Shown here: piece by piece, positions 6,713 through 30,903 of the stretch
Layout of the letters: every line of letters starts with the position of its first letter
How positions within the stretch are numbered: position 1 is the first letter of the stretch
Source of the DNA: Nitrospirales bacterium
GTDB lineage: Bacteria; Nitrospirota; Nitrospiria; Nitrospirales; UBA8639
Assembly (NCBI GenBank): GCA_031315865.1
Contig: JALDRJ010000002.1
Coordinates: forward strand, 765,147-829,146
Length of the DNA: 64,000 nt
Direction of reading: 5' to 3'
Made by a program: the position numbers and the translations under genes
Notes under the pieces: model-generated
The model's database searches: none
What the model saw: only the letters and a program-made list of their open reading frames with translations
What the model was told of the DNA's origin: nothing

Positions 6713-6932
6713 GCCGAGTGCTCCTGAACAGGCCTGGAAGCCTGCTTCCTGAAACATCCATAGAAGTTCCATCCCTTCTATGTACGAAGGGTTTTCTATT
6801 TTTTCTATCGGATTCTTAAGAGTGTTTCTGAACCGTTGAAAGTGAGAGGGGGTGAACCGGAGGGCAGCAATGCACAACCCATACAGACAGGGATCTCATC
6901 GGAAAGAAGGCCGCCGTCATCTTGACGATTTC

Positions 6933-7093: not shown

Positions 7094-7126
7094 ATTGGAA
7101 TGTAGTTGGATTCGCGATAATTCTTT

Positions 7127-11329: not shown

Positions 11330-12898
11330 CTAGGAACTGCCTAGACGTAGCACACGTTCCAAGACTTTTCGTCGAACCGTGTGGTACATCGGCTTGCCTT
11401 CTGTCAACGAGAGGTATTCTTGATAATGTTGATGAGCTAACCTGGCATTCCCTTGATACTCTAAATTATAGGCGAGGTTCAGGTGGACCTCCGGAAGTTT
11501 CGGGGCCAAAAGTTCCGCTTGTCGAAGCGCATCCATCGCTTTGCCGAAATTCCCACGTTGCTGCGCCACCACCGCACGCTGGACCCAAAGATATCCTACG
11601 GAATCGTCCCGGACGAGACCTTCCATAAAAGACTCTTCGGCTTTGTCAAGATTTCCAACTCCCAATTGGGCCGTTCCCATCCAAAACCAGGGTTCCCAAG
11701 AGGCGGGTGGAGGCGTAAACAGCGGTTGTAAAACAGTGATCGCCTCAGCATGGGCATTTTGGCCGATCAGTAATCGCGCCTTCACGAGACGTTGCTGAGA
11801 GGAAAGGGCTTCGTCGGCCGTACCAGCGACTGACGAATTTTTCTGTGGCTCCTCTGCCTGAGGGGAAGTCTGCTGATGACTCGAAGACCGAGTCTCTGAC
11901 GATGTCATGGTGGAATCAGTGGTCTTGACCTGCGAAGAATTTTCCGGGGCGTTGTCATGTGAATGGTGAGTGAAATCGGAGGCGGTACCTGATGCCTCCT
12001 GCTTTGTAGGAATAGGGGCCACGTTCAACCTGTCATTGGGTTTTCTGTATTCTTCTGCTCTAGCTTCGTGACCAGATACCCTCACAATCTCTTGCGTTCC
12101 AGTATCGCCCGAAGAGGAATCGAGTAAAGAAAAATTCGATCGAGGAAGTTCCTCGGTTTTTTGAGAATCATCACCAACCATGGGGCTCTCATTAGCCACG
12201 TCAGCCACGTCAGCCACGGTGGCGGCTACGAGGGCATCAGACCCTGACCGTTGGTTTTGCCCCAGGCCATCGATATTTTCAGGTGTTCGGACGGCTTCTC
12301 GAACCTTCACCTCACGAGTCGAGGATGTTGGGGCCTTTCCTCTCGAGGCAAGGCTTGCGACCGTTACAGGCACAGAATTCTCTTCCAATACTGGTTCTGC
12401 GGAAGCCTCACGCGATAAACTCATGACGAGTTTTTCTTGCGTCTCACCAGAAGGCTTTAACGAATGATCATCCAGTTTAGTGGTTACAACAGATGCTTTG
12501 GGACTTGGGTCGTTCGAGAGAGCCGCAACAGAACGTTCTGCCGTTTGTGGGCGGCTATTGACTGATACAGTCTCATTCATCTGTACATGGGCATTTTTTC
12601 CTGAGGAAGGATTGCCTGTACTTTTTTCGTGAGGAGTTGCCTGCGGGAGGTCTAACACAAGTGATTCGCCCCACCAATAGGCCCCCAGCGCCACAGTCGC
12701 CACAAGGAGAAATCCTCCCAGAGACACGGTCACGAAGCGTGCATCGTGTTTTGGCTTTTCCGTGTCTCCCGATTGTTCCACCTCAACTGACGGCTTCGGC
12801 TCTTCTGCCTTCATGGGAACAGGATCATGTGCGGCCGGGCGTGCGATATCCCCCCGTGCGGACTGAAGACGATTCAATGCATCAGTGATGATACTCAT
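11330..12898 (-). CDS. mshN: MshN-like TPR protein of the MSHA-type pilus locus
   Basis: About 522 residues. The ATG at 12898 gives MSIITDALNRLQSARGD, the N-terminal pattern seen in MshN/GspB-like proteins; a TTG one codon upstream is also in frame. A single transmembrane helix (about 55-75, VTVSLGGFLLVATVALGAYW) is followed by a long, Ser/Thr/Glu-rich, low-complexity linker (about 80-370). The C-terminal 150 residues contain tetratricopeptide repeats (LVKARLLIGQNAHAEAITVL, WEPWFWMGTAQLGVGNLDKA, LPEVHLNLAYNLEYQGNARL). MshN is an accessory assembly protein of MSHA pili and normally follows mshM, as here. The linker is low in conservation and the name rests on position, topology and TPRs. Confidence 0.75.
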   Translation of the reverse strand: MSIITDALNRLQSARGDIARPAAHDPVPMKAEEPKPSVEVEQSGDTEKPKHDARFVTVSLGGFLLVATVALGAYWWGESLVLDLPQATPHEKSTGNPSSGKNAHVQMNETVSVNSRPQTAERSVAALSNDPSPKASVVTTKLDDHSLKPSGETQEKLVMSLSREASAEPVLEENSVPVTVASLASRGKAPTSSTREVKVREAVRTPENIDGLGQNQRSGSDALVAATVADVADVANESPMVGDDSQKTEELPRSNFSLLDSSSGDTGTQEIVRVSGHEARAEEYRKPNDRLNVAPIPTKQEASGTASDFTHHSHDNAPENSSQVKTTDSTMTSSETRSSSHQQTSPQAEEPQKNSSVAGTADEALSSQQRLVKARLLIGQNAHAEAITVLQPLFTPPPASWEPWFWMGTAQLGVGNLDKAEESFMEGLVRDDSVGYLWVQRAVVAQQRGNFGKAMDALRQAELLAPKLPEVHLNLAYNLEYQGNARLAHQHYQEYLSLTEGKPMYHTVRRKVLERVLRLGSS

Positions 12899-12971
12899 CA
12901 ATAGCCCCCATTAAACGTAAGACGGAAAACATAAAACGCTTGGCAATAATCTTTATTCATTAATTCGCGCC

Positions 12972-13793
12972 CTACCCGATTTCTTTCGCCGCTTGCCGCA
13001 CCATCCAGGGACTCACGATCCGTTGTCCTTTGGCGTAGGCGGCAAGAAGCGAACGATCACAAAGTTGATTGATTCGTCTCGGGACTCCTCCACTCATCGC
13101 ATGAATCAGCGCCAAAATGGCGGAATTCACGTGCACACCCTCATCTTTTTTCGCGACCGCCAAACGATGTCGGACATATTTCATCGTTTCAAATAGGGTG
13201 AAAGGCTTCAGGCGATACCGTACGCTGATTCGTTGAGCCAAGGGACGCAATGCCCGTTTCATGAGTTTACTCTCGAGTTCCGGCTGACCGACGAGCAGCA
13301 GGCACATCAACTTTTCTTTTTCGGTATCCAAATTCGAGAGCAGACGCAATCCTTCCAAGACTTTTCCACTCAACCGGTGCGCTTCGTCAACGAGTACGGC
13401 AACCCGCTCACCGCCTTCGGCCAACCGCAGCAGTAAACGCGGCAACTCGCGTTGCAGCGATCCCAATGAGGCGTCCTGGGGGATCGCCCCCGTCAGGTCT
13501 TCATAGATCGAAGCCAGCAGCCCCCCGTACGATTGATCGGGGTTGAGTAAGTAGGCAAATCGCGTTTTTTCGGGTGGGTGCCGAAGCAAATGCCGGCAGA
13601 TGAGCGTCTTCCCGAGCCCCACTTCACCCGTCAGCATCGTGAGATTACCGCTGGCAATCCCAAAACGGAGATGAGTAAGCGCCTCAAGATGCCGGCTTCC
13701 CGGGAAAAAGAAATCCGTATCCGGTGTAATACGAAATGGCGGTTCGATAAAACCAAGGTCCTCATAACACAAGGCTAAATTACCTGAGATCAT
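12972..13793 (-). CDS. mshM: MshM-like AAA ATPase (ExeA/GspA family)
   Basis: A 273-residue cytoplasmic ATPase of the ExeA/MshM type. It starts with the family signature for this group (YEDLGFIEPPFRITPDTDFF), has Walker A GEVGLGKT at about residues 57-64, Walker B VAVLVDEAHRL (about 130-140), a sensor region LLLVGQPELESKL and the C-terminal QRISVRYRLKPF and GGVPRRINQLCDRSLL motifs typical of this family. Such ATPases help secretin assembly or insertion. The ATG overlaps the stop of mshL by four bases, so the two are coupled. The usual C-terminal membrane and peptidoglycan-binding part of ExeA is absent, which matches MshM. Confidence 0.88.
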   Translation of the reverse strand: MISGNLALCYEDLGFIEPPFRITPDTDFFFPGSRHLEALTHLRFGIASGNLTMLTGEVGLGKTLICRHLLRHPPEKTRFAYLLNPDQSYGGLLASIYEDLTGAIPQDASLGSLQRELPRLLLRLAEGGERVAVLVDEAHRLSGKVLEGLRLLSNLDTEKEKLMCLLLVGQPELESKLMKRALRPLAQRISVRYRLKPFTLFETMKYVRHRLAVAKKDEGVHVNSAILALIHAMSGGVPRRINQLCDRSLLAAYAKGQRIVSPWMVRQAAKEIG

Positions 13794-15343
13794 AAACGGC
13801 CCTCCACGATTCGAGGTTGCAGAAAAATCACCAGTTCACTCTTCGCCGTGATTTTATAGGTTCCTTTAAAGAGTCGCCCTAACCAAGGAATGTCTCCCAG
13901 CAGCGGAACCTTCCGCTCGGTTTCGGATACTTCATCTTGAATCAACCCTCCGATGATCACCATCTCCCCATCCTTGAGCCGCACCAATCCAGACGACTGC
14001 TTCACATCAAGAATGGGGGCCGTCGCCGTCTGCTGAGGGGACGTGGCGATTTCACGAAGACGGGAAATTATCGGCGTTACATCCATCATGATCCATCCAT
14101 CGTCCGAGATCTGAGGGGTGACCGAAAGCACGAGCCCGACAGTCACGGAGCGGGCTTGTTCCGTGACGATATTTCCCGTTCCACCCGTTCCTTGCACGAC
14201 CGTTTGGGTGAAAAACGCCTGGTCGGTCGCCACTTTGATCAACGCCGGTTGATTATTGAGCGTCAACAAACGAGGCTGGGAAATCACCTTCAAATCTCCC
14301 TGCTCCTGCAAAGCCTCTATCACCGTCTCAAACGTGCCTTTCGGGAAAGACGTTCTCGTCGTGGTCGTGGCCTGGGCAGTCGCCGCCTTGGCGACGAATC
14401 CGCCAAACGGAGCCGTGATGATATTGGATAAAACAAGGTTACCGGCTACACCATCTAAGGTGATCTGGTCCCAGTTTATTCCCAGGCTATAGCTGTCATT
14501 GAGATTCACTTCATAAATACGGGCCTGTATCTCGACCTGACGGTGGAGAGAACCACTGACCTTGGCAAGATATTGAGCAATGTCGACGACTCGTTGATGC
14601 AGGTCTGTCACCTGGATCGTCCCTGAGAGCCGGTTAAACACGAGCCGGCCTTCTTTTGACATCAAGGATTTCACCTGGGTTTCCAATTCTTCCCAAAACT
14701 TGATCTCGTCCTGTTGATTAACCGTAATTTCTCCTGTTCCTTGTCCGGCGCTCCCGCCACCGCTTGACGAGATATTGGCTTTGTTTTCTCCGGTGCCTCC
14801 CCGGACAAGTCGTATGTAGTCCAGGTTAAAGATTCGCGTTTCGTACTTACGCACCCGAATCAGGTCGCCATCCTGTTCCCAATAGTACCCATGGGCATCC
14901 AGCAATGCTGACATGGCGGCTTTCAACGGCAACGTGTGGAAATTCACGGTGATATTGCCGGTAATGTCCGGTCCCGCCACGATATTGAGTTGATTCGTAT
15001 GGGCAAAGAGTGTCAACGCATCAACCAATGGCATGTCCTGAGCTCGAAAGCTAAAGAGCGGCCCCAGGTCTTCTTCGGTTTGAGCGGCCTCGGCCAGATG
15101 CCCTAAAGGCATTCGATCGGCGACGGATAACACATGCGGCTCAACCATGTCTTGAGCTGGCAGTGACCCTATGAGAGCAGGCGATTGCGGGGCAACGCTC
15201 AAGACAGTTGAATCGTCTTCATCCTGAACAGCGACGGAACGTGGCGCCGTGCTACAACTACTCAGGACAAGAAATGCCGGAATGAGCGCCGTTAAGCAGG
15301 CTCTTTCCCAAAAAACATTGCCTGGAATAGTACGAACATTCAT
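13790..15343 (-). CDS. mshL: MshL-like secretin, outer-membrane pore of the MSHA-type pilus
   Basis: The frame runs from 15625, but the ATG at 15343 is chosen: it yields a lipoprotein signal (LTALIPAFLVLSSCS) and lies 25 bases after the mshK stop. The product is 517 residues. After a linker there is an STN/secretin N domain (FSFRAQDMPLVDALTLFAHT, LNIVAGPDITGNITVNFHTL, and YYWEQDGDLIRVR), an N1-like domain (RLSGTIQVTDLHQRVVDIAQ) and the secretin core with the family signature (LTLNNQPALIKVATDQAFF, MDVTPIISRL, LVRLKDGEMVIIGGLIQDE, VPLLGDIPWLGRLFKGTYK). It forms the multimeric outer-membrane channel for the pilus. A Gly/Ser-rich loop (SSSGGGSAGQG) sits in the middle of the periplasmic region. 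Confidence 0.92.
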   Translation of the reverse strand: MNVRTIPGNVFWERACLTALIPAFLVLSSCSTAPRSVAVQDEDDSTVLSVAPQSPALIGSLPAQDMVEPHVLSVADRMPLGHLAEAAQTEEDLGPLFSFRAQDMPLVDALTLFAHTNQLNIVAGPDITGNITVNFHTLPLKAAMSALLDAHGYYWEQDGDLIRVRKYETRIFNLDYIRLVRGGTGENKANISSSGGGSAGQGTGEITVNQQDEIKFWEELETQVKSLMSKEGRLVFNRLSGTIQVTDLHQRVVDIAQYLAKVSGSLHRQVEIQARIYEVNLNDSYSLGINWDQITLDGVAGNLVLSNIITAPFGGFVAKAATAQATTTTRTSFPKGTFETVIEALQEQGDLKVISQPRLLTLNNQPALIKVATDQAFFTQTVVQGTGGTGNIVTEQARSVTVGLVLSVTPQISDDGWIMMDVTPIISRLREIATSPQQTATAPILDVKQSSGLVRLKDGEMVIIGGLIQDEVSETERKVPLLGDIPWLGRLFKGTYKITAKSELVIFLQPRIVEGRL

Positions 15344-15368
15344 ACGTATCAACTCTTCATCACTCCCA

Positions 15369-16025
15369 TCACGAACAGGCGGAACCTGTAGAACAATCTC
15401 GACCATCCTTGAGAACGGCCTGTGTTTTCGTTCTTCGTTCGTCTCCTCTTGAATCGGACAGTCCAGACTCACGCCTCGTTCGCACCATTTCTTGGCTTCT
15501 CCGTTCCCCTCTGTTGGTAGTACCACTCGAATCTTTAAACCCCACATGATGTCGACCAGAAGGCCCCTGAAGCCACACGCCATCGGCTTCGATTTTTGCG
15601 ACTCGCAGGCCTTCAACCCGATCACCTTCCTCCACGAGTTTTCGGTTGATCATCGCGACTTTCGGCGCCGGTTCCAAGGCGACGGCGCTCAACTCCAGCG
15701 CAGGAAGAACCACACGCGGGGCTGAAACCTCGGCTAATTGCCGTTTCTCTTGATCGGCCGTCTTCTCGGGATTCTTGGACTGCGCCGTCATGGGCGCAAA
15801 CGGATCGCGTTCGAAGGTTGTCGTCCACCCAAATTCCGTGGTATCGGTGATCGAACGTTCATGACTCAATGACTTGAATTCAGCAAGAGGGGAGGAGGCA
15901 AGTGGCAAAGCGCGTGACGGCAAGGCCTGCCGGATGACCTCTTCTTCCGTATTGAAGTAGAAGAGCGCCACCGCTACGACACAGAGTCCAAGAACGACCC
16001 ACGGATTATTCAGGTACTGTCTCAT
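15369..16025 (-). CDS. mshK: MshK-like pilus biogenesis protein
   Basis: About 218 residues starting at the ATG at 16025, which overlaps the mshJ stop by four bases; a longer frame from 16043 is less likely. A transmembrane helix lies at residues 9-25 (WVVLGLCVVAVALFYF). A periplasmic region follows with a PilP/MshK-like core (FERDPFAPM, then VAMINRKLVEEGDRVEGLRV and IEADGVWLQGPSGRHHVGF), which in related systems contacts the secretin. The tail after about residue 165 is unusually long, basic and polar (RRSQEMVRTRRESGL) and ends in cysteines. The assignment relies on the PilP-like core and the gene order. Confidence 0.72.
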   Translation of the reverse strand: MRQYLNNPWVVLGLCVVAVALFYFNTEEEVIRQALPSRALPLASSPLAEFKSLSHERSITDTTEFGWTTTFERDPFAPMTAQSKNPEKTADQEKRQLAEVSAPRVVLPALELSAVALEPAPKVAMINRKLVEEGDRVEGLRVAKIEADGVWLQGPSGRHHVGFKDSSGTTNRGERRSQEMVRTRRESGLSDSRGDERRTKTQAVLKDGRDCSTGSACS

Positions 16026-16591
16026 GCAGCAGCCTTGATCCACACATGCAGCCCCACATTCATATGCGCCGCTCCCGTTCCACCCTGCACCTCTACTTCC
16101 TGAAGATCCATTCGAACCTGATCTTCCGAGAGTTGACGGAGAAACCGCAGGTATTTTTGGTAGGCGCCTTGAAGCATGCTCGGCGTTTCGGGGTACACTT
16201 TTAAATCAACAGGAACCTTTTCGACCTCGGTGAAACCAGGAACAGCAATGCGAGTGGGACGCACGCGATAAGTGACCTGCAACCCCATGGTAGACGCCTG
16301 CGTCTGCAGTTGCTGAAACCAGAGGGCGAGATGATCGAAGTCGCGAAGGAGCATCTGGTCGGCCTTCTGCATGCGTTGTCGTACGTTGTCCGGATGAGCC
16401 TGCGACCACTGCGTACGAAGATCCGCGATTTCATGCGAGAGGTAGTAACTGGCCTGGTTGCTCGAATGAGCCTGTTCAATCATTGACATCTGTGTCAGCA
16501 GAACGAAACCGATAAAGCCCAGCGTAAGCCCGATGGCGAACACCATAATCGAACGGGAATATCCACCAACCTTTTTCAGCAATTCATTCAT
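16022..16591 (-). CDS. mshJ: MshJ-like (PilO-type) pilus assembly protein
   Basis: About 189 residues from the ATG at 16591; a TTG two codons upstream is also possible. The N-terminus is followed by one transmembrane helix (15-37, SIMVFAIGLTLGFIGFVLL), then a coiled coil (ASYYLSHEIADLRTQWSQAH) and a small C-terminal alpha/beta fold of PilO type (LQTQASTMGLQVTYRVRPTR, VEVQGGTGAAHMNVGLHVWI). PilO/MshJ proteins are part of the inner-membrane alignment complex that links the cytoplasmic motor to the secretin. It lies 15 bases after mshI and overlaps mshK, consistent with the conserved I-J-K-L order. Confidence 0.75.
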   Translation of the reverse strand: MNELLKKVGGYSRSIMVFAIGLTLGFIGFVLLTQMSMIEQAHSSNQASYYLSHEIADLRTQWSQAHPDNVRQRMQKADQMLLRDFDHLALWFQQLQTQASTMGLQVTYRVRPTRIAVPGFTEVEKVPVDLKVYPETPSMLQGAYQKYLRFLRQLSEDQVRMDLQEVEVQGGTGAAHMNVGLHVWIKAAA

Positions 16592-16606
16592 CGTCAAAAC
16601 GCGGCA

Positions 16607-18016
16607 TTATCCTTGAATTCTTCCGATCATTGAAAATGTTCGAGGCTGGGCGTCCAGCCCTCTTTGTTGTTTCGTCGAAACCTCCTGAAGCCATGCTCCG
16701 CGCCAATCCCCGACGAAGGAGACTCGGTATGGTCCCTCTCTCAAACGCTCTTCAAGAGTCGCCAAACTTTGCGAGCCAGTGACCAGATCACCAGGCGCCA
16801 GGCCGGTCAGCTCCACTCGCCACTCATTCGATTCATGCGTAATCATGGCCTTGTTCAAAGTCAGTTCCGAAGGCAGGATCGTTCCCAGGTGTCCCAAAAG
16901 CCAACCGGGCAATGGCTGAACCCGTTGGTCTAGAATACGCTCGGCTCTAGCTTTCTGATCGGCCAAATTAGCCAATCGGTCCTTCCAGGTTTTTTTTTGT
17001 TTCAGCAAATCGCTTGATTCGGCTGCGAGGGCCACCGCGAGATTATGCGTTCCATTTAATTGACCTTGAAAAAAGCTGACGAGCCCGACTCCCACGAGCA
17101 AACAGATTACCACCGCTGCAGCCGTGAGTTTCATCATCACGTTTCGCATAGGCCCCAGAATCGCTTCTTTCGATGTAAAATTACTCGGACTTCGAACTGG
17201 CAATGCCAGGCTGACCCAGACCCAATAGGATGGGTCCGGACTCATAGGACTTTGGTTCAACGGCAGACCCACGAAGGGTTGCACCGTTGCCACCGAGACA
17301 TCCGATGATTCTCCGACCATCCAGACTTGCGAGACATTAATCGCATATTGTTGGGCACAAAACAGGATTGATCGTGTGATTTCGCGTCCGATCCGTTCGG
17401 ACGCATTCACGCCCTCACATGTCGGCTCCAAGAAGCGTTCAAATAACGGCGTACCATCGCCCATCGCCACGAGCAACGCGATCTTATCGGCCACGAGCGT
17501 CACCAGGAGCACGACATCATGATTATCGAGGGGAAGCGACCGGACCTGCTCAACGAATGTTGCGGAGAGGGGCGCGATTTGCACTGGCGTTAAGTCCAAT
17601 GCTTGGCTGACTTCGATCACGGAATCCACGACATCTTTGGGCCAAATATCAATCAGAACGCCGATTCTCCCCCGAGCCTCTCGAGTGGTTCGAAACCGCC
17701 ACGTAGTCGGACCATCCCAGGTTTTCATCTCCTCGACAGCATTCTTCAGATATAGACGAAGGTCAGAGGGCTTCATCGCCGGCACTTGAATGTATTGATG
17801 AACAAAGCGTTGATCTTCAATGAGAAAAGAAATTTTTTGGCCAGAAAAGTTAGTGTGTTTGAGGGTTTCTCTGACTGCCGTCCGCAAATCGCCAGAAGAC
17901 TCGACCCGATGCGGATATTCCCATTGCCCCACGACCTGATCCTTCACGACAGCCAGGGCACGAAAGCGGCCGTGAATCAGGCTCACGCCAAGAATCGTTT
18001 TTTTTCGAGGCGTCAT
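16607..18016 (-). CDS. mshI: MshI-like pilus assembly protein (PilM-PilN type)
   Basis: The frame opens at 18106, but an ATG at 18016 with GAGG nine bases upstream gives a start directly at the actin-like core (TPRKKTILGVSLIHGRFRAL), so about 469 residues. Residues 1-280 resemble PilM (VVLLVTLVADKIALLVAMGD; GREITRSILFCAQQYAINVS). A transmembrane helix at about 300-320 (LTAAAVVICLLVGVGLVSFF) and a coiled coil follow, then a PilN-like periplasmic part (PGWLLGHLGTILPSELTLNK; WRVELTGLAPG). MshI thus combines cytoplasmic PilM and membrane PilN functions. It is the first gene of the assembly-machine block and follows the giant prepilin gene after a 240-base gap that shows only a weak hairpin (AGGCAC/GTGCCT, 18218-18240). 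Confidence 0.78.
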   Translation of the reverse strand: MTPRKKTILGVSLIHGRFRALAVVKDQVVGQWEYPHRVESSGDLRTAVRETLKHTNFSGQKISFLIEDQRFVHQYIQVPAMKPSDLRLYLKNAVEEMKTWDGPTTWRFRTTREARGRIGVLIDIWPKDVVDSVIEVSQALDLTPVQIAPLSATFVEQVRSLPLDNHDVVLLVTLVADKIALLVAMGDGTPLFERFLEPTCEGVNASERIGREITRSILFCAQQYAINVSQVWMVGESSDVSVATVQPFVGLPLNQSPMSPDPSYWVWVSLALPVRSPSNFTSKEAILGPMRNVMMKLTAAAVVICLLVGVGLVSFFQGQLNGTHNLAVALAAESSDLLKQKKTWKDRLANLADQKARAERILDQRVQPLPGWLLGHLGTILPSELTLNKAMITHESNEWRVELTGLAPGDLVTGSQSLATLEERLREGPYRVSFVGDWRGAWLQEVSTKQQRGLDAQPRTFSMIGRIQG

Positions 18017-18256
18017 AAAACCTGGCCTCGTGAGAGTGAGATCAATCATCATTCGAAATCGCCGGCCATCCGGCAGGCATGCACAGAGTCCTCCATAGAC
18101 ACTCATGTAGAGTTTCGGAGTTTTCTGTATGATTCTTGATGGTTAGGGAAAATTTCTTTTAAAAACGGATAGCGGTGAACGACAGAGATGCCCGTCGTCA
18201 TTCGCCAGTGTGGTGGGGAGGCACATGAAAACGCCGTGCCTGCGGTTCGCCGTTAT

Positions 18257-21196
18257 TTATGACGTCGTCATCTGGAAGTCGTCAAGATAGAGGAAGGATG
18301 GTCCGTCGGTGTCGATATCCTCAGCGACGCCAAAGTAGATCGTATAGGTCCCCGCACCCGGAAAATTGAAATAGGTCGTTTGGTAGCCGGTCATATTCCC
18401 GCCTGGACCACCAGGAATAAAAGACGACCCCTTGACACTGCCTAAGATCGTGAACTGAACCTCACTGCCGCTCGAATCCGTCACGTAGTAGAACGCGAGG
18501 TCATTGTACGTCCCACCGGGCGTATCCGCCGTTCCAAAGTTCCATTGGAATGACAGTTGGCTACCGTCCCCAACACGCACAGTCTGCTTGATCCCTTCAA
18601 ACTCTTTAATCGATATGCCCGTCTTTGCGTTAAAGGCAGCATTGGTGAATCCAAAGAACGCCTCGAGATTTCCATTATCCTGACCACTGGTTTCGGTATC
18701 GGGAGAATCTGCGAACGTTCGGATTCTGGCCTGATACGTCCCGTCAGGAGGCGTGATACCTAGATCTGACGCTTGCTCCAGCACGAGACTGGATGTCCCG
18801 TCAAAGACCGTGCCGATCGTCCCGGCGTACGTCCACCCGGCAAAATCGAAGTATTCTTCGAAGCTGCCATTTGAGACCCTGTTCAACACGGCCGTCTCCG
18901 CCAGCATAATGCCTCCGAGATTATCCACACCCGCGTCGGTGTAGGTACTCTGCGCGTTCTTCGTCCCCCATACAGTGACCTCGATGCTTCGCGTCCCGAC
19001 GGGAACCTCGACGTACGGAATCGTGAGGTCAGTCCAAGAATAGGCCGTGGCATTGTTGCTGACGGCCGCACTGCCTATCGGATTCCCCCCAGAAACCGCG
19101 TCATAAAAAGTGAGCTGCAAGCTCCCGTAGTCCCGTTTGAGAGCATCCGTCTGTCCATGACCGACTCCCGAGAGCGTCACAACCAATCCGCCAGCATCAA
19201 TATTCACAGAACAAGCGCTGACGGCAATCCGCTGCGAAAGACCAGTTCGATGAGTATTTCCTCCCGTCTCCCCATTTGTTTCGGCGCTGGCAAAATAGGT
19301 CCCGCCAGGCGCACTGGGCATATAATAGGAAGCTGTCGTGGCATTCCATTGATTCACTCCACCTTGGCCAAAGACATCCTCAGTTCGTGTCCAGCCTGTG
19401 AGGTCGCCAGTCTCGAACCCCGGGTTGATAATCGGCAGGAGCCAATTGGAACAAGTCCCGCTCAATGTAATTCCGACCACTGAATCCGATGATGAACTGG
19501 GGATCAGCCCCGCATCACTCCCATCAAACAACATGGTGGCCCTCCCGGCCGACAAGAGTCCTGTTCCCGTCAAATCCAACACAAAGACATCTTCGCTGTT
19601 GACCAGCAGATTGTTGTCACCCACTAACACACCATCCCCCACCGTCGTCGACAAAATCTGTCCGGCTTTTAAGGTCACATCGCCGACCTTCAGCGGGGTC
19701 TCGACCAATTCAAACGAATAGAAATAATCATCGGCATTGTACAAGTCCGTCAAGGTGCCGGCCGTAGTGTTTCCTGCCCAGAATGGAACGAATAATTTGA
19801 TTCCTGAGCGTATCGCCGTCCGCATCAAGAAAGAGCCAGCCTGGATGGTCGTCCCCCCCACTTTCGTCGCCGTTTCCACGAGCGACACCCCTTGCACACG
19901 AGCCCACCCCACATCCGATCCATCGAACAACATGAAAAACGTTCCTGAGGAATAGTCCCCTGGCTTCCAGGGACGAAACACATAGACATCTTTCTCTTCC
20001 ACAAACAATGAATTGTGACTCGTCATCGTGACATCGTGAATATCGGATGCCAGGATATCACCGGCTTTGAGATCGACCGTATTGGCGCCTGTACCAATCG
20101 TTATATCTCGCGACACGAAATGGAGTGACTCAACCACCGACGCTCCAAACTCCTGAAGATCGACCAGAGGCCCGCGGAATGTCCCAGCCGTCGTCCCGGC
20201 TGGCCCCGACTCGAACGTGAGACCTGGCTCGCCATAGGCGATCATCATATCGTTATTCCATGTGCCCACCCCGGATTTCCCGGTGGGAGCCCCCCAGGTC
20301 GTGAGCCAGAACTGCGCAGGCTCACCGCCGCATTCGACGCCTGGCACATGCCATTGTTTTCCCGCCTCACATGCTGGATCGAATTCAAACTCGACATCTG
20401 ACGTCAGGACGACCTGCAATTCCGGAGTCCCAAAGGTATTGGCCTCATCGAAGCTTAGAATCGTCCCGGGAAGATGGTACCGCTCATACGGCGCCAGGGT
20501 CCCACCCGATGAATGTGTCGTCGTTCCTCCAATTTGAAAGCTCCCGCCATTACCGACAGCAGATAAAGAAACTCTCAAAAAGGTGCTGGCCAGGTTTCCC
20601 CGATAGATATGCAATTCCGGATTCACCGATTCGTCCATTGACCACCATGTCGTAAATTCCGTCCCGTTGGAGATGGTCGGAGCCGCGTCAGCCACCCGGT
20701 TCGAAATCAAGAGAAATCGCGCATCGACCAGTGCCGTTTCTGCCAACCCGGTGCCGTTATTGAATCCGCTCATATTGGGATGGAGAACATAGTATCGTGG
20801 GAACAAGCGGTCGTTCCGTAAGAGCTGTGTAGAATCCAATGGCGAGTAACTCGTGTGAGCCGCAAGCGTCGGAGGCCACGTATGCGTACTCCGGAGATAG
20901 GTCGCCGAGCTCGACCCGATATGCTCAAGAATGTCATTTTCTGTCTCGTTGGCCTTCGTATTGAAGCTTGTGACCATATTCGGCAGCAGCGCGGTCGCCA
21001 AAATCACCACAATCGCCAACACTCCCATCATCGCGATGAGAGCAAACCCCTTATCATCAAGCTTTCCGCTCATCTTGTGGATGTTGGCCTTCAACTTTGA
21101 ATGAACCCTCGCTCGTCTTTTGCTCCAGGTCTCTTCTCCCCCGTCTTGCGTTTTGCAGCTCCCGGGAGAGGCGTCACGCGTTCCCCATTCATCCAT
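18257..21196 (-). CDS. Giant modular prepilin-like protein (979 residues) with lectin-like C-terminal modules
   Basis: The longest member of a pilin series. A leader of about 49 residues ends in a prepilin cleavage site (KLDDKG, then FALIAMMGVLAIVVILATAL), with Ala in place of the usual Glu5. The N-terminal block (to about 280) is shared with the 276- and 589-residue neighbours (FPRYYVLHPNMSGFNNGTGL, DARFLLISNRVADAAPTISN, ELHIYRGNLASTFL). Residues ~300-600 carry repeats of a module containing KPGDYSSGTFFMLFDGSDVG and ATMLFDGSDAGL. The last ~370 residues hold two jelly-roll-like modules starting NPGFETGDLTGW and NGSFEEYFDFAGW, typical of extracellular glycan-binding or PEP-CTERM-type ectodomains. 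The start at 21196 overlaps the upstream pilin stop by eight bases; an ATG at 21073 would give a more usual leader. Function as a tip adhesin is inference. Confidence 0.82.
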   Translation of the reverse strand: MDEWGTRDASPGSCKTQDGGEETWSKRRARVHSKLKANIHKMSGKLDDKGFALIAMMGVLAIVVILATALLPNMVTSFNTKANETENDILEHIGSSSATYLRSTHTWPPTLAAHTSYSPLDSTQLLRNDRLFPRYYVLHPNMSGFNNGTGLAETALVDARFLLISNRVADAAPTISNGTEFTTWWSMDESVNPELHIYRGNLASTFLRVSLSAVGNGGSFQIGGTTTHSSGGTLAPYERYHLPGTILSFDEANTFGTPELQVVLTSDVEFEFDPACEAGKQWHVPGVECGGEPAQFWLTTWGAPTGKSGVGTWNNDMMIAYGEPGLTFESGPAGTTAGTFRGPLVDLQEFGASVVESLHFVSRDITIGTGANTVDLKAGDILASDIHDVTMTSHNSLFVEEKDVYVFRPWKPGDYSSGTFFMLFDGSDVGWARVQGVSLVETATKVGGTTIQAGSFLMRTAIRSGIKLFVPFWAGNTTAGTLTDLYNADDYFYSFELVETPLKVGDVTLKAGQILSTTVGDGVLVGDNNLLVNSEDVFVLDLTGTGLLSAGRATMLFDGSDAGLIPSSSSDSVVGITLSGTCSNWLLPIINPGFETGDLTGWTRTEDVFGQGGVNQWNATTASYYMPSAPGGTYFASAETNGETGGNTHRTGLSQRIAVSACSVNIDAGGLVVTLSGVGHGQTDALKRDYGSLQLTFYDAVSGGNPIGSAAVSNNATAYSWTDLTIPYVEVPVGTRSIEVTVWGTKNAQSTYTDAGVDNLGGIMLAETAVLNRVSNGSFEEYFDFAGWTYAGTIGTVFDGTSSLVLEQASDLGITPPDGTYQARIRTFADSPDTETSGQDNGNLEAFFGFTNAAFNAKTGISIKEFEGIKQTVRVGDGSQLSFQWNFGTADTPGGTYNDLAFYYVTDSSGSEVQFTILGSVKGSSFIPGGPGGNMTGYQTTYFNFPGAGTYTIYFGVAEDIDTDGPSFLYLDDFQMTTS

Positions 21197-21884
21197 GCAT
21201 GAGGTAAATCAACATCTCCTTTGTCGTGATGTCATATTTCACACGACCGCGAAGTTGCCGCTCTGTTGCAGTACCGCCAAATCCTTTATCCAGGATCGAA
21301 TCCACGCGTTCAAAGTCTTGAAGCGTAATGTCGGAAAACGAGACATAGACCACGTTGGCCGAAGCCGGGATATCACTATTCGCATCGTCATTAAGATCCC
21401 ATGCACGGTTTGATCCCGTCGTCGCTGTCCCATACGCTTCTGGTGTTCTCGCCGGCATGCGAACCGTCGTGCCAAGTCCCGGAGGAGTCGTCGAAGAGAA
21501 CTTCGCGAGATAAGGCCCCTTGAACTTAACCCAACTATTGTTGCCGGTATTCAAAGGATCGGATTGATCCAGGGTCAATCGCGCAGGAAGTGATCGGCTA
21601 TTATTACTATTTCCGCTGTTTTCCACGGCCGGAACGCCTGAGACGTCTAATGGAAGAAGCGAACCGATGTCCGCATAATAATCAACGACGGCCGTTTCAT
21701 AGGTCTTAACCGCTGCGACCAAGGCATTCGCTTTTGATTCGGCCATAATCTCGAAGACTCTCGGGAGCAAGAGCGCGACAAGAACGGTCATGACAGCCAG
21801 TACGCCGATCATTTCGATCAAGGTAAAGCCGTCGCTCTTCCCTCGTTGTTCGATACTCAAGGTGGTCTGTATAGCTCTTTGCAT
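21189..21884 (-). CDS. MSHA-type prepilin, paralogue of the pilin at 28904-29569
   Basis: About 231 residues from the ATG at 21884 (GAAGGC shortly upstream); the open frame extends to 21938. The leader ends KSDG and cleavage would give FTLIEMIGVLAVMTVLVALL, a complete class III signal with Glu5. The body follows the same pattern as the pilin at 28904-29569: SKANALVAAVKTYETAVVDY, SLPARLTLDQSDPLNTG, KFKGPYLAKF, AWDLNDDANSDIP, and the end RGRVKYDITTKEMLIYLMHG. It is probably a major or minor subunit of the fibre. It lies ten bases after the 589-residue prepilin and overlaps the start of the 979-residue one, so the pilins form an operon. Confidence 0.85.
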   Translation of the reverse strand: MQRAIQTTLSIEQRGKSDGFTLIEMIGVLAVMTVLVALLLPRVFEIMAESKANALVAAVKTYETAVVDYYADIGSLLPLDVSGVPAVENSGNSNNSRSLPARLTLDQSDPLNTGNNSWVKFKGPYLAKFSSTTPPGLGTTVRMPARTPEAYGTATTGSNRAWDLNDDANSDIPASANVVYVSFSDITLQDFERVDSILDKGFGGTATERQLRGRVKYDITTKEMLIYLMHG

Positions 21885-21948
21885 GTTGCCTTCAACTATG
21901 GTTCTTCCGAATCTCATCGGCCGTATTTCGTCTTTCAATTGCTGCTGT

Positions 21949-23718
21949 TCACAGCGTTGGCGCCAGCGAAACCGCTTGTATATTTTCCGACGTCGTATTC
22001 AGTCCAACGTCCGCTCCCTCAAGGAGAAGTGTCGCATTGGCGACGGTTGCCCCCGATCCCATCGTCGTCGCAGAAATATCCAAATAAAATATGTCATATG
22101 GCCCGACATCCAAATCGTTCATGCCAACGTTTGTTTCCGCTTGGCCTAACGTGATGAGGAGATAACCCGGCTGAAGGGTCGTTCCCGCAAACGTCACGGC
22201 CTCTTCGATGACATCGAGGCCGACGACAGCTGTTCCTACACCAATATCAATATCACTGCCGTTTATCAGCGTTGAGGTCGTGCCGCTCGTTGTCCCAAGC
22301 CCCACCCCCATCGGCACAAAATACTGTATATTGTTCTGATTGCCGCCTGCTTCACTGAAAATGAATGTTCCGGCTTGCAAGTTCACGTCACCGACAGTCA
22401 CCGTGCGTTCGATCAACGAGATGCTCGTCGCATTATTCGCAAAGATCCCCCACCCTGTGAAATTATGCAGCAACATCAAAAATGTCCCTGAGGAATAGTC
22501 TCCAGGCTTGTCAGGACGAAAAATAAACAGATCGTTGGAGCCAACGGTCAGAGCGGTATTGCTGACTAACGCTTCAAAAGTGTTCGTTGAGAGCAACAGA
22601 TCCCCGGGCTTGACCTCCATCGTCGTCGTCACGCCGATCGTCATCTGAGTCGTGACGTAATGAATAGCCGAAATGCCGTTCACTCCCCCAAACGAGAATC
22701 CATCAAGAGAGACAGCCGACGAAAGGGTCCCACTCGTCAGTCCTGGCTCCCCCGCTAGATCAGGCATTCCGAATTGCAGCACCTCCCCATTCTGCCAGCT
22801 ATCCAGACACGGCGCGCCGCTAGGCGAAGGCACGTCTGTTGCTGTCGTCATCCATAGGGACCAGCATTCAGGGTTCGACGCCGGCATCGTCCTCCAGCGT
22901 GAACCAGCGGCGTGACAGGGGTCGTATCGATAACTCCTATCTTCCATGAGGGAGAATTGGACTTCTGGTGTGCCATAGGGGGAGACTTCATCGAGGGCAA
23001 TCATGGTTCCAGCGAGATGGTATTTCGTATGAATAAGCGCCGGTTTCGCGCGACAATCCCAATTGGTCGTCACATCCTCAATTCGATAGGCTCCTCTTGC
23101 CCCAGGAGCTTCTAGCGTCAACAAGCTGTACAGATCACTGACTTGACCTCGATGGATTTTGAGGTCCGGCGTGGAGGTTTCGTCTGTATCCCACCACGCG
23201 TCGAACTCCGCGGCGTTTGTAATCGTGGGAGCTGCGTCGTCGATCAGGCTAGAGATAAGAAGATACTGTGCGTCATCAAGCTCGTTCGAAGATAAGCCTG
23301 TCGCATTCGTGAGGCCTCTGACATCGGGATGCACGAAAAAATAACGAGGGAACCCGGCGTCATTCCGCGTCAATTGGAGAATGTCGGTGGGCAGATAATC
23401 AGGACTGAGCGACGCAAGATCTGGAGGCCAGGCGTGGGTTTCCCTGAGGTAGACTTCGATACCTTGCGCGATGCCTTGGAGTGTTGTGATTTCAGCATCG
23501 CGGACAGCCGCCTTGAGATGATTGATCACGGCCGGAGAGATCACCGCGCCAAGGATCGCGATGACCGCGATGACGCCGATAAACTCGAGAAAGGAAAACC
23601 CTCGGTTCGTCAGACGGAACGCATGAGGCGTGTGACGTGAGATGCAGGGAAAAGAACGTGATACGTCAAGCGTGAAGACTCTTATGCGATTGTTGACGAA
23701 ATAGAAAAGACGCCTCAA
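21949..23718 (-). CDS. Large modular prepilin-like protein (589 residues)
   Basis: A TTG start at 23718 is supported by AAGGA eight bases upstream; no in-frame ATG precedes the cleavage site. The leader ends RLTNRG and the mature protein begins FSFLEFIGVIAVIAILGAVI. Residues ~60-290 match the block of the 276-residue pilin (GIAQGIEVYLRETHAWPPDL, GFPRYFFVHPDVRGLTNATG, DAQYLLISSLIDDAAPTITN, DLKIHRGQVSDLYSLL). The C-terminal 300 residues are rich in Thr, Gly and Asp and include KPGDYSSGTFLMLLHNFTGW and NATLLLEGADVGLNT, the module also found in the 979-residue neighbour. It ends without lectin-like modules. It is probably exported and assembled with the pilus as a minor, exposed subunit. Confidence 0.82.
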   Translation of the reverse strand: MRRLFYFVNNRIRVFTLDVSRSFPCISRHTPHAFRLTNRGFSFLEFIGVIAVIAILGAVISPAVINHLKAAVRDAEITTLQGIAQGIEVYLRETHAWPPDLASLSPDYLPTDILQLTRNDAGFPRYFFVHPDVRGLTNATGLSSNELDDAQYLLISSLIDDAAPTITNAAEFDAWWDTDETSTPDLKIHRGQVSDLYSLLTLEAPGARGAYRIEDVTTNWDCRAKPALIHTKYHLAGTMIALDEVSPYGTPEVQFSLMEDRSYRYDPCHAAGSRWRTMPASNPECWSLWMTTATDVPSPSGAPCLDSWQNGEVLQFGMPDLAGEPGLTSGTLSSAVSLDGFSFGGVNGISAIHYVTTQMTIGVTTTMEVKPGDLLLSTNTFEALVSNTALTVGSNDLFIFRPDKPGDYSSGTFLMLLHNFTGWGIFANNATSISLIERTVTVGDVNLQAGTFIFSEAGGNQNNIQYFVPMGVGLGTTSGTTSTLINGSDIDIGVGTAVVGLDVIEEAVTFAGTTLQPGYLLITLGQAETNVGMNDLDVGPYDIFYLDISATTMGSGATVANATLLLEGADVGLNTTSENIQAVSLAPTL

Positions 23719-23733
23719 GGATGATATCCTTCA

Positions 23734-24561
23734 TCATGTCTGACAGGTCGAACCCAGGGCATTCCATCGCGAACCCGCGTAACAATCCGGATTGAATTGA
23801 TAGCCTGCGTCGAAGGTCAGCGTAAAATTCAGTTCTGAATTTCCGTTCGAAAACGTATCCGCTTCATCCAGTTCTATCGGCGTCCCCACCAGATGATAAT
23901 TGCCATAGGACGTTAATCTCCCTCCTCCGGAGTTCGTCGCCGTCCCATCGATTCGGTAACTCCCTCCATCCCCGACTGCACTCACGCTGACCAGATGAAA
24001 CAGCCTGCCCATGTGGCCACGGTAAATTTCGACATCTGGTGTTGTCGTCGTATCGGTATTCCACCAGACATCGAATTGCGCCCCGTTTGTGATCGTTGGA
24101 TTGGCGTCTGCCGCGAGATTGGAGATCAGGAGAAATCGCGCATCTGGCAGATCGCTGCCCGTTATCCCCATCGCATTGTTAAAGCTTCCCATGTCCGGAT
24201 GCACGAAAAAATACCGGGGAAACCCTCGTTCATTCGTCCCGATCCGGGTTGAAGCAATCGGCACATAATCAGGGCTCAAGGATGGAAGGTTGGCAGGCCA
24301 CGAACGGTTTTCTCGCAAATAGACTTCGATGCCTTTGGCGATATCTTCCAAATACATGGCTTCGTGGTCTCGCGCCGCGATATTCAAATGTTTGACGAAT
24401 TGTGGAGCCAGCAGCCCACCCAGGATTGCCAACACGGCTAACACACCGAGCATTTCGATTAACGTAAATCCGTTGTTCGTGTCTCGTCGTCCATTGTTCA
24501 TTGATCGCGAAAGTAACGCCAACACTCCTCTAGCGCGATACTGATCAGCGATGGATAACAT
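23734..24561 (-). CDS. MSHA-type prepilin-like protein (about 275 residues)
   Basis: The start is the ATG at 24561, just after GTG, with GAGGAG a few bases upstream. The leader is long (about 31 residues) and ends RRDTNNG before FTLIEMLGVLAVLAILGGLL, a canonical class III signal with Glu5. The mature domain shows IAKGIEVYLRENRSWPANLP, GFPRYFFVHPDMGSFNNAMG, DARFLLISNLAADANPTITN and DVEIYRGHMGRLFHLVSVSA. This block is the minimal form of the series completed by the 589- and 979-residue proteins. Three cysteines near the C-terminus (NPDCYAGSRW; STCQT) could form a disulfide. First gene of the second pilin operon, facing the PEP-CTERM gene. Confidence 0.83.
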   Translation of the reverse strand: MLSIADQYRARGVLALLSRSMNNGRRDTNNGFTLIEMLGVLAVLAILGGLLAPQFVKHLNIAARDHEAMYLEDIAKGIEVYLRENRSWPANLPSLSPDYVPIASTRIGTNERGFPRYFFVHPDMGSFNNAMGITGSDLPDARFLLISNLAADANPTITNGAQFDVWWNTDTTTTPDVEIYRGHMGRLFHLVSVSAVGDGGSYRIDGTATNSGGGRLTSYGNYHLVGTPIELDEADTFSNGNSELNFTLTFDAGYQFNPDCYAGSRWNALGSTCQT

Positions 24562-24564
24562 CAC

Positions 24565-25071: not shown

Positions 25072-25078
25072 AAGGAGG
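25072..25078 (+). promoter_or_regulatory. Strong ribosome-binding site AAGGAGG deciding the PEP-CTERM start
   Basis: AAGGAGG lies eight bases before the ATG at 25087. It rules out the upstream in-frame start at 25060 and gives a protein beginning with a proper signal peptide. Confidence 0.85.
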
Positions 25079-25086
25079 TTCGCATT

Positions 25087-25864: not shown

Positions 25865-27070
25865 TCAGCGCATGCCTCCCATCAGGCTCATCATGGGAAG
25901 GAAGATGGACACAGCGACGATACCCACCGTTCCGATCAACCCAACCGTGATCATCGGTTCCATGATGCCAAAGATCTTTTTGACCCGCCGTGGAATTTCT
26001 TCGTTGTAATAATGCGCCACATGCAGCATGGTTTGATCCAGGCGACCAGCCGCCTCACCGACTGAAACCATTTGAATCAAGATTGAAGGAAAGACCGGAT
26101 GGAGCCGGAGCGCATTGCTGATGGTCGCGCCTTCCGATACATCCTGCTCCACTTTCTTGAGGGCCTTGGCGATGACGAGATTGCCGACCAACCGCTGACA
26201 CAAGCTCAGCCCCTGCAGCACAGGAATGCCGGCTTTGTACAGCACTCCAAAGTTATGCGTGAACCGTGAAAGCGCGACCATACTCTTGAGCGGGCCGAAA
26301 ACCGGTATCTTCAGCATCCAGGTGTCCCACAACAAGGCAAAACCCGGGACCCGGGACTTGCTCGCTATTATGCCCACAGGTATGCCGATTAGCAGAATTG
26401 CCCATACCCACCAGGTATTTTCCATAAACTTGCTAAACGCCAGGACCACGACCGTGACGAAGGGAAGCGGAACATTCAGACTTTCAAGGATCGGCGTGAA
26501 GCGGGGAATGACAAAGGTAAACATCAGAATAAAGAGTGCGAGGACAGCCGTCAGGATCGTGGTGGGATAGATGACGGCCTGACGGACTTCTCCTTTCATC
26601 CGTTCTACCCATTCCAGGTATCGCTGCAACTCCACAAACGTCTCAGGCAATGTCCCACTTTCTTCACCAGCCTGCACGAGGTTCACGACGAGTTGAGGAA
26701 AGACGCGGGGATACTGACTCATGGCTGTATGCAGAGGAACGCCTGTCTCAACCGTACGCCACACTCTATCTAAAACGAGGCCAAACTGCGGGGTTGATGC
26801 TTCCTGAGCTAGATTGATCAACGAGGTGAGGACCGGCACACCGGCTTGCGACAGACTCGACATGTGTGTGACAAATTCGAGTATGACCTGCGGTTTCACT
26901 TTGACAGTGCCATGTGACCCTGTCGCCACTTCGCGAGTTTCTTTGGCCTCTATGAGGAGTTTTCCACCCTCCTTCAATCGTCCTCGAAGATCATCGACAT
27001 TCTCGGCCGCCAGGACCCCTTTCTGAGTGCCGCCTTGCTGGTCAACGGCCCGGTATTTATAGTTAGCCAT
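25865..27070 (-). CDS. mshG: MshG-like inner-membrane platform protein (GspF/PilC family)
   Basis: 401 residues with the two duplicated T2SF/GspF domains: the first around 68-190 (FVTHMSSLSQAGVPVLTSLI, then RVFPQLVVNLVQAGEESGTL) and the second around 270-390 (RFTHNFGVLYKAGIPVLQGL, then HPVFPSILIQMVSVGEAAGR). Membrane helices at about 167-190 (IYPTTILTAVLALFILMF), 215-235 and 372-395 (ITVGLIGTVGIVAVSIFLP). The N-terminal YKYRAVDQQGGTQKGVLAAE is the usual family start. It is the inner-membrane platform on which pilins are extracted, working with the ATPase MshE, whose gene it overlaps by eight bases. Confidence 0.93.
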   Translation of the reverse strand: MANYKYRAVDQQGGTQKGVLAAENVDDLRGRLKEGGKLLIEAKETREVATGSHGTVKVKPQVILEFVTHMSSLSQAGVPVLTSLINLAQEASTPQFGLVLDRVWRTVETGVPLHTAMSQYPRVFPQLVVNLVQAGEESGTLPETFVELQRYLEWVERMKGEVRQAVIYPTTILTAVLALFILMFTFVIPRFTPILESLNVPLPFVTVVVLAFSKFMENTWWVWAILLIGIPVGIIASKSRVPGFALLWDTWMLKIPVFGPLKSMVALSRFTHNFGVLYKAGIPVLQGLSLCQRLVGNLVIAKALKKVEQDVSEGATISNALRLHPVFPSILIQMVSVGEAAGRLDQTMLHVAHYYNEEIPRRVKKIFGIMEPMITVGLIGTVGIVAVSIFLPMMSLMGGMR

Positions 27071-28903: not shown

Positions 28904-29569
28904 TTACCCATGATTGAGGTAAATCATCATTTGGTCAGTAGCCGAATCATATTTCACCCGGCCGCGCAAGACTCGTTGGGCCGTCGTGGTGCCCATACCC
29001 GGATCAATAATCGCGTCGACTTTGTCGAAATCGGAATCGCTGATTCCCGTAAAATAGACATAGACCACATTGGCCCCACTCGGGATATCGCTGTTCCCAT
29101 CATTATTCAGGTCCCACGCGATATTGGAGGCTGTTGTCGCTGTCCCGTAACTCACGGGTGCCGTGGCGGGCATGTATACGCCTGTTCCAAGCCCTGGAGG
29201 CACAGCCGTGACAAATTTGGCTAAATACGGGCCTTTGAACCTGGACCAGCCATTCGCGCCGGTGTTCAACGCATCGGATGAATCCAACGTCAAACGTGCC
29301 GGAAGCGAGACTGCCGTGGCGCTATCGCCGGTTGCCTCCGCGGTCGGGACTCCCGTGGCATCGAGAGGCAGCAACGAACTGATGTCGGAGTAGTAATCCA
29401 CCACGGCCGTTTCATACGTCCGGATAGCTGCAACCAAGGCATTAGCCTTTGATTCCGCCATAATCTCAAACACCTTTGGCAACAGTAATGCGACCAGAAT
29501 AGCGATGACGGCCAATACGCCGATCATTTCGATTAAGGTAAATCCTTGTTCGCGTCGTTCCTTATTCAT
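28904..29569 (-). CDS. MSHA-type major-pilin-like prepilin
   Basis: 221 residues. The start has AAGGG eight to nine bases upstream and a short leader MNKERREQG, cleaved before FTLIEMIGVLAVIAILVALL with Glu5: the most classical prepilin of the set. The globular part reads KANALVAAIRTYETAVVDYY, LPLDATGVPTAEATGDSATA, RFKGPYLAKF, AWDLNNDGNSDIPSGANVVY and ends GRVKYDSATDQMMIYLNHG. It closely resembles the pilin at 21189-21884, suggesting a duplication on either side of the machinery genes. With its short leader, good ribosome-binding site and location at the head of mshE-mshG it is my candidate for the major subunit. Confidence 0.87.
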   Translation of the reverse strand: MNKERREQGFTLIEMIGVLAVIAILVALLLPKVFEIMAESKANALVAAIRTYETAVVDYYSDISSLLPLDATGVPTAEATGDSATAVSLPARLTLDSSDALNTGANGWSRFKGPYLAKFVTAVPPGLGTGVYMPATAPVSYGTATTASNIAWDLNNDGNSDIPSGANVVYVYFTGISDSDFDKVDAIIDPGMGTTTAQRVLRGRVKYDSATDQMMIYLNHG

Positions 29570-30889: not shown

Positions 30890-30903
30890 AAGGAGGTTGT
30901 GAG

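What the first reader, a model, noticed from the sequence alone, without database searches (positions are those of the whole stretch)
18257..20100. Pilin with two C-terminal carbohydrate-binding-like modules
The last ~370 residues of the 979-residue prepilin hold two stretches beginning NPGFETGDLTGW and NGSFEEYFDFAGW, a start typical of extracellular jelly-roll domains seen in glycan-binding and PEP-CTERM proteins. Fusion of such modules to a pilin N-terminus would put a glycan-binding head on a retractable or static fibre. Pos5 is Ala not Glu, which in other systems marks tip-initiating minor pilins (GspK/PilX class).
Basis: partly seen in the sequence, partly recalled or inferred. Interest (0 to 1): 0.7.

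Follow-up and report, generated by a model that had tools for sequence, protein, structure and literature searches.

The report
Pilus tip protein with swappable sugar-binders
A gene in a nitrite-oxidiser-type bacterium encodes a pilus subunit that looks built to sit at the fibre's tip and carry sugar-binding-like domains, and its counterparts in relatives carry different such domains at the same place.

Summary
P0001 (979 codons, 18257-21196, minus strand, one open frame) is a prepilin with Ala at mature position 5 and two C-terminal modules (18905-19462; 18260-18883). Module 1 is a CBM-like jelly roll: its model matches TmCBM61, CBM16, a porphyran-binding CBM and glycan-binding F-box proteins at Z 12-15. 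Module 2's fold is untested; it matches a cyanobacterial PEP-CTERM protein over 99% of its length.

The gene lies in an MSHA-like pilus operon; its head domain is shared with two neighbouring Glu5 pilins. Of 28 family genomes with this head, 25 have a head pilin lacking Glu5; the other 3 are cut at contig ends. The 33 other full heads and 16 of 16 major-type pilins have Glu5. Only Glu5-less pilins carry lectin/CBM-like modules, and these differ: LamG, CBM96, an unassigned domain, module 1, or none. Two heads 74% identical carry LamG and CBM96. A genome of another family repeats the pattern.

Best reading: a Glu5-less tip pilin carrying exchangeable glycan-binding heads. Modular pilins and Glu5-less tip subunits are known separately; their union in one swappable slot is a new variant. 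Tip location and glycan binding are inferred.

The parts
18257..21196 (-). P0001: Glu5-less modular prepilin, 979 codons; likely start 21073 (codon 42)
21047..21073 (-). Leader peptide MSGKLDDKG; cleavage expected before F51
   Evidence: sequence; N_methyl PF07963 16.8 bits, below its cut-off of 21.2
20327..21046 (-). Pilin N-terminal helix and head (residues 51-290), shared with P0002 and P0003; position 5 is Ala
19457..20146 (-). Beta-repeat region (residues about 351-580), about three units
18905..19462 (-). Module 1: CBM-like jelly roll (residues 579-764)
18260..18883 (-). Module 2: PEP-CTERM-protein-type domain (residues 772-979); fold not determined
21189..21938 (-). P0004: Glu5 pilin of the 213-residue type, candidate shaft subunit
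21949..23718 (-). P0002: Glu5 pilin with the same head and the repeats
23734..24564 (-). P0003: Glu5 pilin with the same head only
25865..27070 (-). Platform protein (GspF/MshG-like)
   Evidence: PF00482 181.8 bits; TIGR02120 311.8 vs cut-off 424
27063..28754 (-). Extension ATPase with MshEN/c-di-GMP domain
   Evidence: PF00437 434.5, PF05157 58.5 > 23.1; NF053729 56.3 > 38
28904..29569 (-). Glu5 pilin of the 213-residue type
   Evidence: PF07963 29 > 21.2
29850..30542 (-). Pilin-like gene upstream
   Evidence: PF07963 16.7, below cut-off; tblastn similarity to 213-type pilins in relatives
16607..18106 (-). PilM/PilN-like (GspL-like) protein, named by position
   Evidence: no family over cut-off; conserved position
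16022..16597 (-). PilO/GspM-like protein, named by position
   Evidence: no family over cut-off; conserved position
15369..16043 (-). PilP/GspC-like protein
   Evidence: NF041515 38 vs cut-off 150
13790..15625 (-). Secretin, MshL-like
   Evidence: PF00263 152.7 > 27.5; TIGR02519 243.6 vs cut-off 250.2
12972..13793 (-). AAA ATPase, MshM-like by position
   Evidence: PF13401 77.6 > 27; TIGR03015 190.8 vs cut-off 324.5
11330..12901 (-). TPR protein, MshN-like by position
   Evidence: PF07719 42.4 > 27

Best explanation
P0001 is a modular minor pilin of an MSHA-like type 4 pilus whose motor carries a c-di-GMP-binding domain. It lacks Glu5, so it could not neutralise the N-terminus of a subunit above it. 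It is therefore expected to be the first, topmost subunit, probably stacked on its Glu5 sisters P0002 and P0003, with the 213-residue pilins forming the shaft. Its C-terminus extends through a beta-repeat stalk to two carbohydrate-binding-like modules, so the fibre presents a glycan-binding head to surfaces, biofilm matrix or other cells. In relatives the same Glu5-less position carries other lectin-like domains or none, so the slot works as a carrier whose head is exchanged to suit the ligand. Shown here: sequence, domain homology, the fold model of module 1, conservation of the Glu5-less slot, and the differing modules. Inferred: tip location, stacking order, glycan binding, ligand.
For: Module 1 model: VIA Z 14.2 to K2-2 tail spike, 13.8 to TmCBM61, 13.1 to CBM16, 12.4 to a porphyran CBM, 14.6 to Skp1-FBG3. 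Module 2: full-length homology to a cyanobacterial PEP-CTERM protein. Glu5-less head pilin in 25 of 28 family genomes; all 33 other full heads and 16 of 16 major-type pilins have Glu5. 11 of 26 Glu5-less pilins carry lectin/CBM-like or other extra C-terminal domains, 0 of 33 Glu5 head pilins do. In sisters the extra domain is Laminin_G_3 (78.9 > 27.6) or CBM96 (33.6 > 26). Independent repeat in G331, another family. Published rule that the tip complex is capped by a subunit lacking Glu5 (PMC10191384, passages). MshEN/c-di-GMP domain in the operon's ATPase.
Against: No direct evidence of tip location or sugar binding. The module 1 fold is also that of Stig cyclases and a Cry toxin domain. The PDB profile match to module 1 leans on viral rows: without them E is 3.3. 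Module 2's fold is unresolved. Twelve of 26 Glu5-less pilins carry no extra domain at all, so a lectin is not needed for the slot. Without the N-terminal helix the tree needs two changes of Glu5.
Confidence: 0.55

Rival explanations
1. Adhesin pilin as above, but the modules bind proteins, minerals or the cell's own extracellular matrix (exopolysaccharide with PEP-CTERM proteins) rather than foreign glycans; the pilus then serves aggregation and biofilm building.
For: Module 2 is of the PEP-CTERM-protein type. PEP-CTERM proteins flank the operon (window 25060-25746 and 30757-31677). Jelly rolls bind many kinds of ligand.
Against: LamG and CBM96 in the same slot of sisters and CBM61-like similarity point to sugars, though not to foreign ones.
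Confidence: 0.2
2. The modular pilin is spread along the fibre rather than sitting at the tip.
For: Location was not tested. System-specific minor pilins can be spread along the fibre (PMC10191384, passages).
Against: Lack of Glu5 is conserved in 25 of 28 genomes against Glu5 in all its sister heads, which fits the published tip rule. A mature subunit of about 929 residues would be hard to fit into a shaft (inference).
Confidence: 0.12
3. The system is a T2SS-like secretion machine and the modules recognise secreted cargo rather than external sugars.
For: The ATPase scores slightly higher with GspE (577.6) than PilB (569.8), the platform is best matched by GspF, and the PilP-like protein by GspC, all below cut-off.
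Against: The secretin's best model is MshL, nearly at its cut-off; the ATPase has an MshEN/c-di-GMP domain; there are many copies of a 213-residue pilin; the head-pilin genes hold no GspK domain.
Confidence: 0.1

Closest known systems
Streptococcus sanguinis PilC (modular lectin pilin) with PilA and PilB
   Same: A pilin with a lectin grafted at its C-terminus, in a set that also has a Glu5-less pilin (PMC9934059, passages)
   Different: In S. sanguinis the lectin pilin keeps Glu5 and a plain pilin (PilA) lacks it; here one chain both lacks Glu5 and carries the modules. Its lectin is ConA-like; here CBM61-like and PEP-CTERM-type.
GspK/PilK, cap of the HIJK tip complex
   Same: Lacks Glu5 (stated in PMC9934059, passages)
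   Different: No T2SSK domain in P0001; the head is a different domain shared with its sisters; the C-terminal modules are added.
PilC/PilY1 tip adhesin
   Same: A tip carrier plus variable adhesive modules (PMC8179133, passages)
   Different: PilY1 is not a pilin. Here carrier and effector would be one pilin chain.
MSHA pilus of Vibrio cholerae
   Same: MshL-like secretin, MshEN ATPase, MshM/MshN-like genes, no prepilin peptidase in the locus (PMC6668835, passages)
   Different: Outside the groups in which that survey reported MSH; the pilins and the modular tip candidate are not Msh proteins by any model used here.
CBM61 (TmCBM61) and related jelly-roll CBMs
   Same: Fold of module 1, Z 13.8 and 21% identity
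   Different: No Pfam or NCBIfam family reached cut-off for module 1; ligand residues not compared.
NF038132 / cyanobacterial PEP-CTERM proteins
   Same: Module 2 is homologous over its length
   Different: Here the domain sits on a pilin and has no PEP-CTERM tail.

Membership tests
Modular type 4 pilins | Class III signal peptide (leader ending in Gly, then a hydrophobic stretch) | tested here: met
   Leader MSGKLDDKG then FALIAMMGVLAIVVILATALL; Pfam N_methyl 16.8, below its cut-off of 21.2, while sister P0003 with the same head passes (28.3)
Modular type 4 pilins | Extra domain not specific to pilus biology | tested here: met
   Module 1 fold and module 2 homology
HIJK K subunit (GspK/PilK) | No Glu5 | tested here: met
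   Ala5; conserved in the slot
HIJK K subunit (GspK/PilK) | T2SSK domain | tested here: not met
   No PF03934 match in P0001; genome hits lie outside the window
HIJK K subunit (GspK/PilK) | Caps a complex at the tip | not testable with these tools
   No complex prediction or imaging here
MSHA (MSH) pilus | MshE-like ATPase, MshG-like platform, MshL and MshM present together | tested here: inconclusive
   All four positions filled; MshEN domain over cut-off, but MshL 243.6 vs 250.2 and the ATPase/TPR models below cut-off
MSHA (MSH) pilus | No prepilin peptidase in the locus | tested here: met
   PF01478 only at C2:1603114 and C2:2180643; window is C2:765147-829146
MSHA (MSH) pilus | Groups with MSH in a tree of type 4 filaments | not tested
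   No such tree was built
CBM61 | Jelly-roll fold like TmCBM61 | tested here: met
   Z 13.8, rmsd 2.6, 140 residues
CBM61 | Galactan-binding residues | not tested
   Coordinates of 2xom not available to the tools
NF038132 PEP-CTERM proteins | Score over the curated cut-off and a PEP-CTERM tail | tested here: not met
   22.1 vs 90; no such tail in the sequence

The most novel reading that the evidence does not exclude
Nitrospirales have an MSHA-like pilus with a dedicated Glu5-less tip position, older than the sampled family, whose occupant is both the capping pilin and the receptor-binding head. Unrelated lectin folds (CBM61-like and PEP-CTERM-type in the window, LamG, CBM96 and others in sisters) have been swapped onto one conserved pilin carrier, so ligand specificity evolves by domain replacement, as in phage receptor-binding proteins.
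Probability: 0.4. Interest if true: 0.72.

Novelty: new variant of a known kind. Interest (0 to 1): 0.56.

Why it matters
The tip of MSHA-type pili is poorly characterised; a 2023 review leaves MSHA out of its component table for that reason (PMC10191384, passages). A natural series of related carriers with different lectin heads would make two questions directly testable: whether lack of Glu5 fixes a pilin at the tip, and whether the tip module sets what a pilus sticks to. It also suggests how nitrite-oxidising bacteria may choose partners or surfaces in biofilms and flocs (inference).

Tried and rejected
1. Frameshift or separate C-terminal protein: rejected; one open frame, and the close relative G024 also has two modules in one frame.

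2. Module 2 as a decayed copy of module 1: not supported. The profiles align only over 48 N-terminal columns (probability 79), and module 2 matches PEP-CTERM ectodomains over its whole length.

3. Module 2 in other Nitrospirota: 1 of 295 genomes, the window's own; the P0001 search of the family had also found a PEP-CTERM relative in G020 (E 4.3e-8). NF038132 in the order: 1 of 196, G020, below cut-off. Module 1: 4 of 295. No module 2 relative in IMG/VR.

4. Beta-propeller for the repeats: Foldseek best E 7e-3 and Z 8.7 at most, which the tool's own notes call middling; three repeats would not close a propeller (inference).

5. Absence of PilY1: the search was silent but so were its controls, so nothing is claimed.

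6. The unassigned 'VRDEF' module: best PDB profile hit reelin, E 0.0019, the others weaker.

7. Literature: Nitrospirota + pilin + adhesin gave 0 papers. Nitrospira + MSHA + type IV pili gave 2: passages of PMC6668835 read, the other seen in the listing only. The Nitrospirales comparative paper PMC12342949 has no hit for pili, pilus, MSHA, pilin or adhesi. Modular pilin + Glu5 gave 4 papers: passages read of two, listing only of PMC6916266 and PMC10628169. Only openly licensed PMC papers are covered.

Full report
OBSERVATION. The ORF at 18257-21196 (minus strand) is open over 979 codons. ATG codon 42 (21073) gives a nine-residue leader, MSGKLDDKG, before F51, so the mature chain is about 929 residues and begins F-A-L-I-A. 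Position 5 is Ala. GC and GC3 show no break at the module boundaries.

OPERON. On the minus strand the order is: two upstream pilin-like genes; an extension ATPase with an MshEN/c-di-GMP domain (NF053729 56.3 > 38; PF05157 58.5 > 23.1); a platform protein; pilins P0003, P0002, P0004 and P0001; PilMN-, PilO- and PilP-like genes; a secretin whose best model is MshL (243.6 bits against a cut-off of 250.2); an AAA ATPase; and a TPR protein. Several of these names rest on position and synteny. The window holds no prepilin peptidase; the genome's two lie elsewhere, as the published survey says of MSH loci (PMC6668835, passages). A PilT over its cut-off lies elsewhere in the genome, so retraction is possible in principle. 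I call the system MSHA-like and do not file it as MSHA.

ORGANISM. Its same-genus relative G024 has a contig of the same length (449683) as the record JAJDBM010000024.1, titled a Nitrospirales bacterium MAG, so the window is from Nitrospirales (inference).

SHARED HEAD. Residues 51-290 of P0001 recur in P0002 and P0003 (36-48% identity to P0001 in alignment A7). P0002 also has the beta-repeat region; P0003 ends after the head.

MODULE 1. A profile that includes rows from IMG/VR contigs matches, in the PDB, 8xmz (8e-6; titled a porphyran-binding CBM), Klebsiella-phage K2 tail spikes (3e-5) and TmCBM61 (3e-4). Without those rows the profile gives one hit at E 3.3, so the signal leans on the viral rows. 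The AF2 model has pLDDT mostly 70-96 over module 1, with a low stretch at model residues 33-67. Foldseek gives 71 PDB matches at E <= 0.001. VIA gives Z 14.6 to Skp1-FBG3, 14.2 to K2-2 tail spike, 13.8 to TmCBM61 (21% identity), 13.1 to CBM16 and 12.4 to the porphyran CBM; it also gives 13.5 to Stig cyclases and 11.9 to a Cry toxin domain. A shared fold shows no function. The CBM-like jelly roll is well supported; sugar binding is not shown.

MODULE 2. tblastn finds a Gloeothece PEP-CTERM protein over 99% of the module (32.5%, E 1e-9) and further cyanobacterial relatives, two of them behind a different N-terminal domain. NF038132 scores 22.1 against a cut-off of 90. Profiles of modules 1 and 2 align only over the opening 48 columns.

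REPEATS. Between head and modules lie about three related units: repeat 1 against 3 scores 109, with a shuffle maximum of 46 in 500; repeats 1-2 and 2-3 are weak (9 and 3 of 500 shuffles as high). The model is beta-rich and the best structural neighbours are propellers at Z 8.7 or less, which is not decisive.

THE GLU5-LESS SLOT. P0001 matched 28 of 48 family genomes. I took stretches of those genomes and read the open frames with a head model. In 25 of the 28 a head pilin lacks Glu5 (A, V, G or T). In the other three (G017, G030, G042) the second copy is cut by, or absent next to, a contig end. Full-length heads number 59: 26 without Glu5 and 33 with it. G046 has two Glu5-less copies on separate contigs. 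In G035 the Glu5 copy is broken, so it is not among the 59. All 16 major-type pilins that the model touched have Glu5. In a tree of N-terminus plus head, the Glu5-less rows are one side of one branch (93/92, 93% of bootstraps). With the N-terminal helix left out, two changes are needed and 15% of bootstraps show one group, yet one group is not rejected (p-AU 0.535). A single old origin is therefore likely but not proven.

EXCHANGE OF MODULES. Of the 26 Glu5-less pilins, 11 carry an extra C-terminal domain beyond head and repeats, with the start in view: module 1 in G021, G022 and G023; two copies in G024; modules 1 and 2 in the window; Laminin_G_3 in G038 (78.9 > 27.6); CBM96 in G039 (33.6 > 26; DNRLRE 62.7 > 34 in NCBIfam); and an unassigned domain in G031, G040, G044 and G045. 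Twelve are bare (241-242 aa), one has 282 aa, G027 has only the repeats, and G020 runs off its contig. G020's module 1 sits on another contig with its N-terminus missing, so it was not counted. Of 33 Glu5 head pilins none carries such a domain: 27 are 243-246 aa and six have the repeats only. The G038 and G039 heads are 74.3% identical but carry LamG and CBM96. After this rule was formed, the head model found one genome outside the family, G331: one Glu5 and one Gly5 head pilin in the same operon order, the Gly5 one with the unassigned module. The head was found in 10 of 395 phylum and 29 of 196 order genomes.

MECHANISM. Glu5 of one subunit pairs with the N-terminus of the subunit above, fibres grow tip first, and the tip complex is capped by a subunit lacking Glu5 (PMC10191384, passages). 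P0001 fits the cap. Its Glu5 sisters with the same head would fit directly below. The repeats would be a stalk and the modules the sticky end. In S. sanguinis the modular lectin pilin PilC keeps Glu5 and a plain pilin lacks it (PMC9934059, passages); here one chain has both traits. More than 1,200 modular pilins in 264 architectures had already been counted, some with carbohydrate-binding domains (PMC8179133, passages), so the general kind is known.

VERDICT. The novelty is a new variant of a known kind. Tip location, glycan binding and ligand remain inferences.

Noticed in passing
window 25060-25746 (+) and 30757-31677 (+): Two PEP-CTERM-type secreted proteins on the opposite strand, one between the platform gene and the pilins, one beyond the upstream pilins.
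   Followed up: no
window 1035-10846 (-): Two hybrid histidine kinases, a YfiR-like periplasmic protein and a TonB-dependent receptor (TOL_0244 family) lie beside the pilus operon; a possible signalling input.
   Followed up: no
window 21189-21938, 28904-29569, 29850-30542; L034, L035: The 213-residue Glu5 pilins occur in several copies per operon, three downstream copies in G021 and in G022.
   Followed up: partly
L057-L068: Twelve IMG/VR contigs encode relatives of module 1, and its PDB profile hits include phage tail spikes.
   Followed up: partly
L038 8640-10190 (G027): A separate ORF between the pilins and the PilMN-like gene that reads like an HDOD plus GGDEF protein (recalled motifs; translation).
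   Followed up: no
L120 (G331): A genome of another family in the order has the same pilin pair and operon order.
   Followed up: yes
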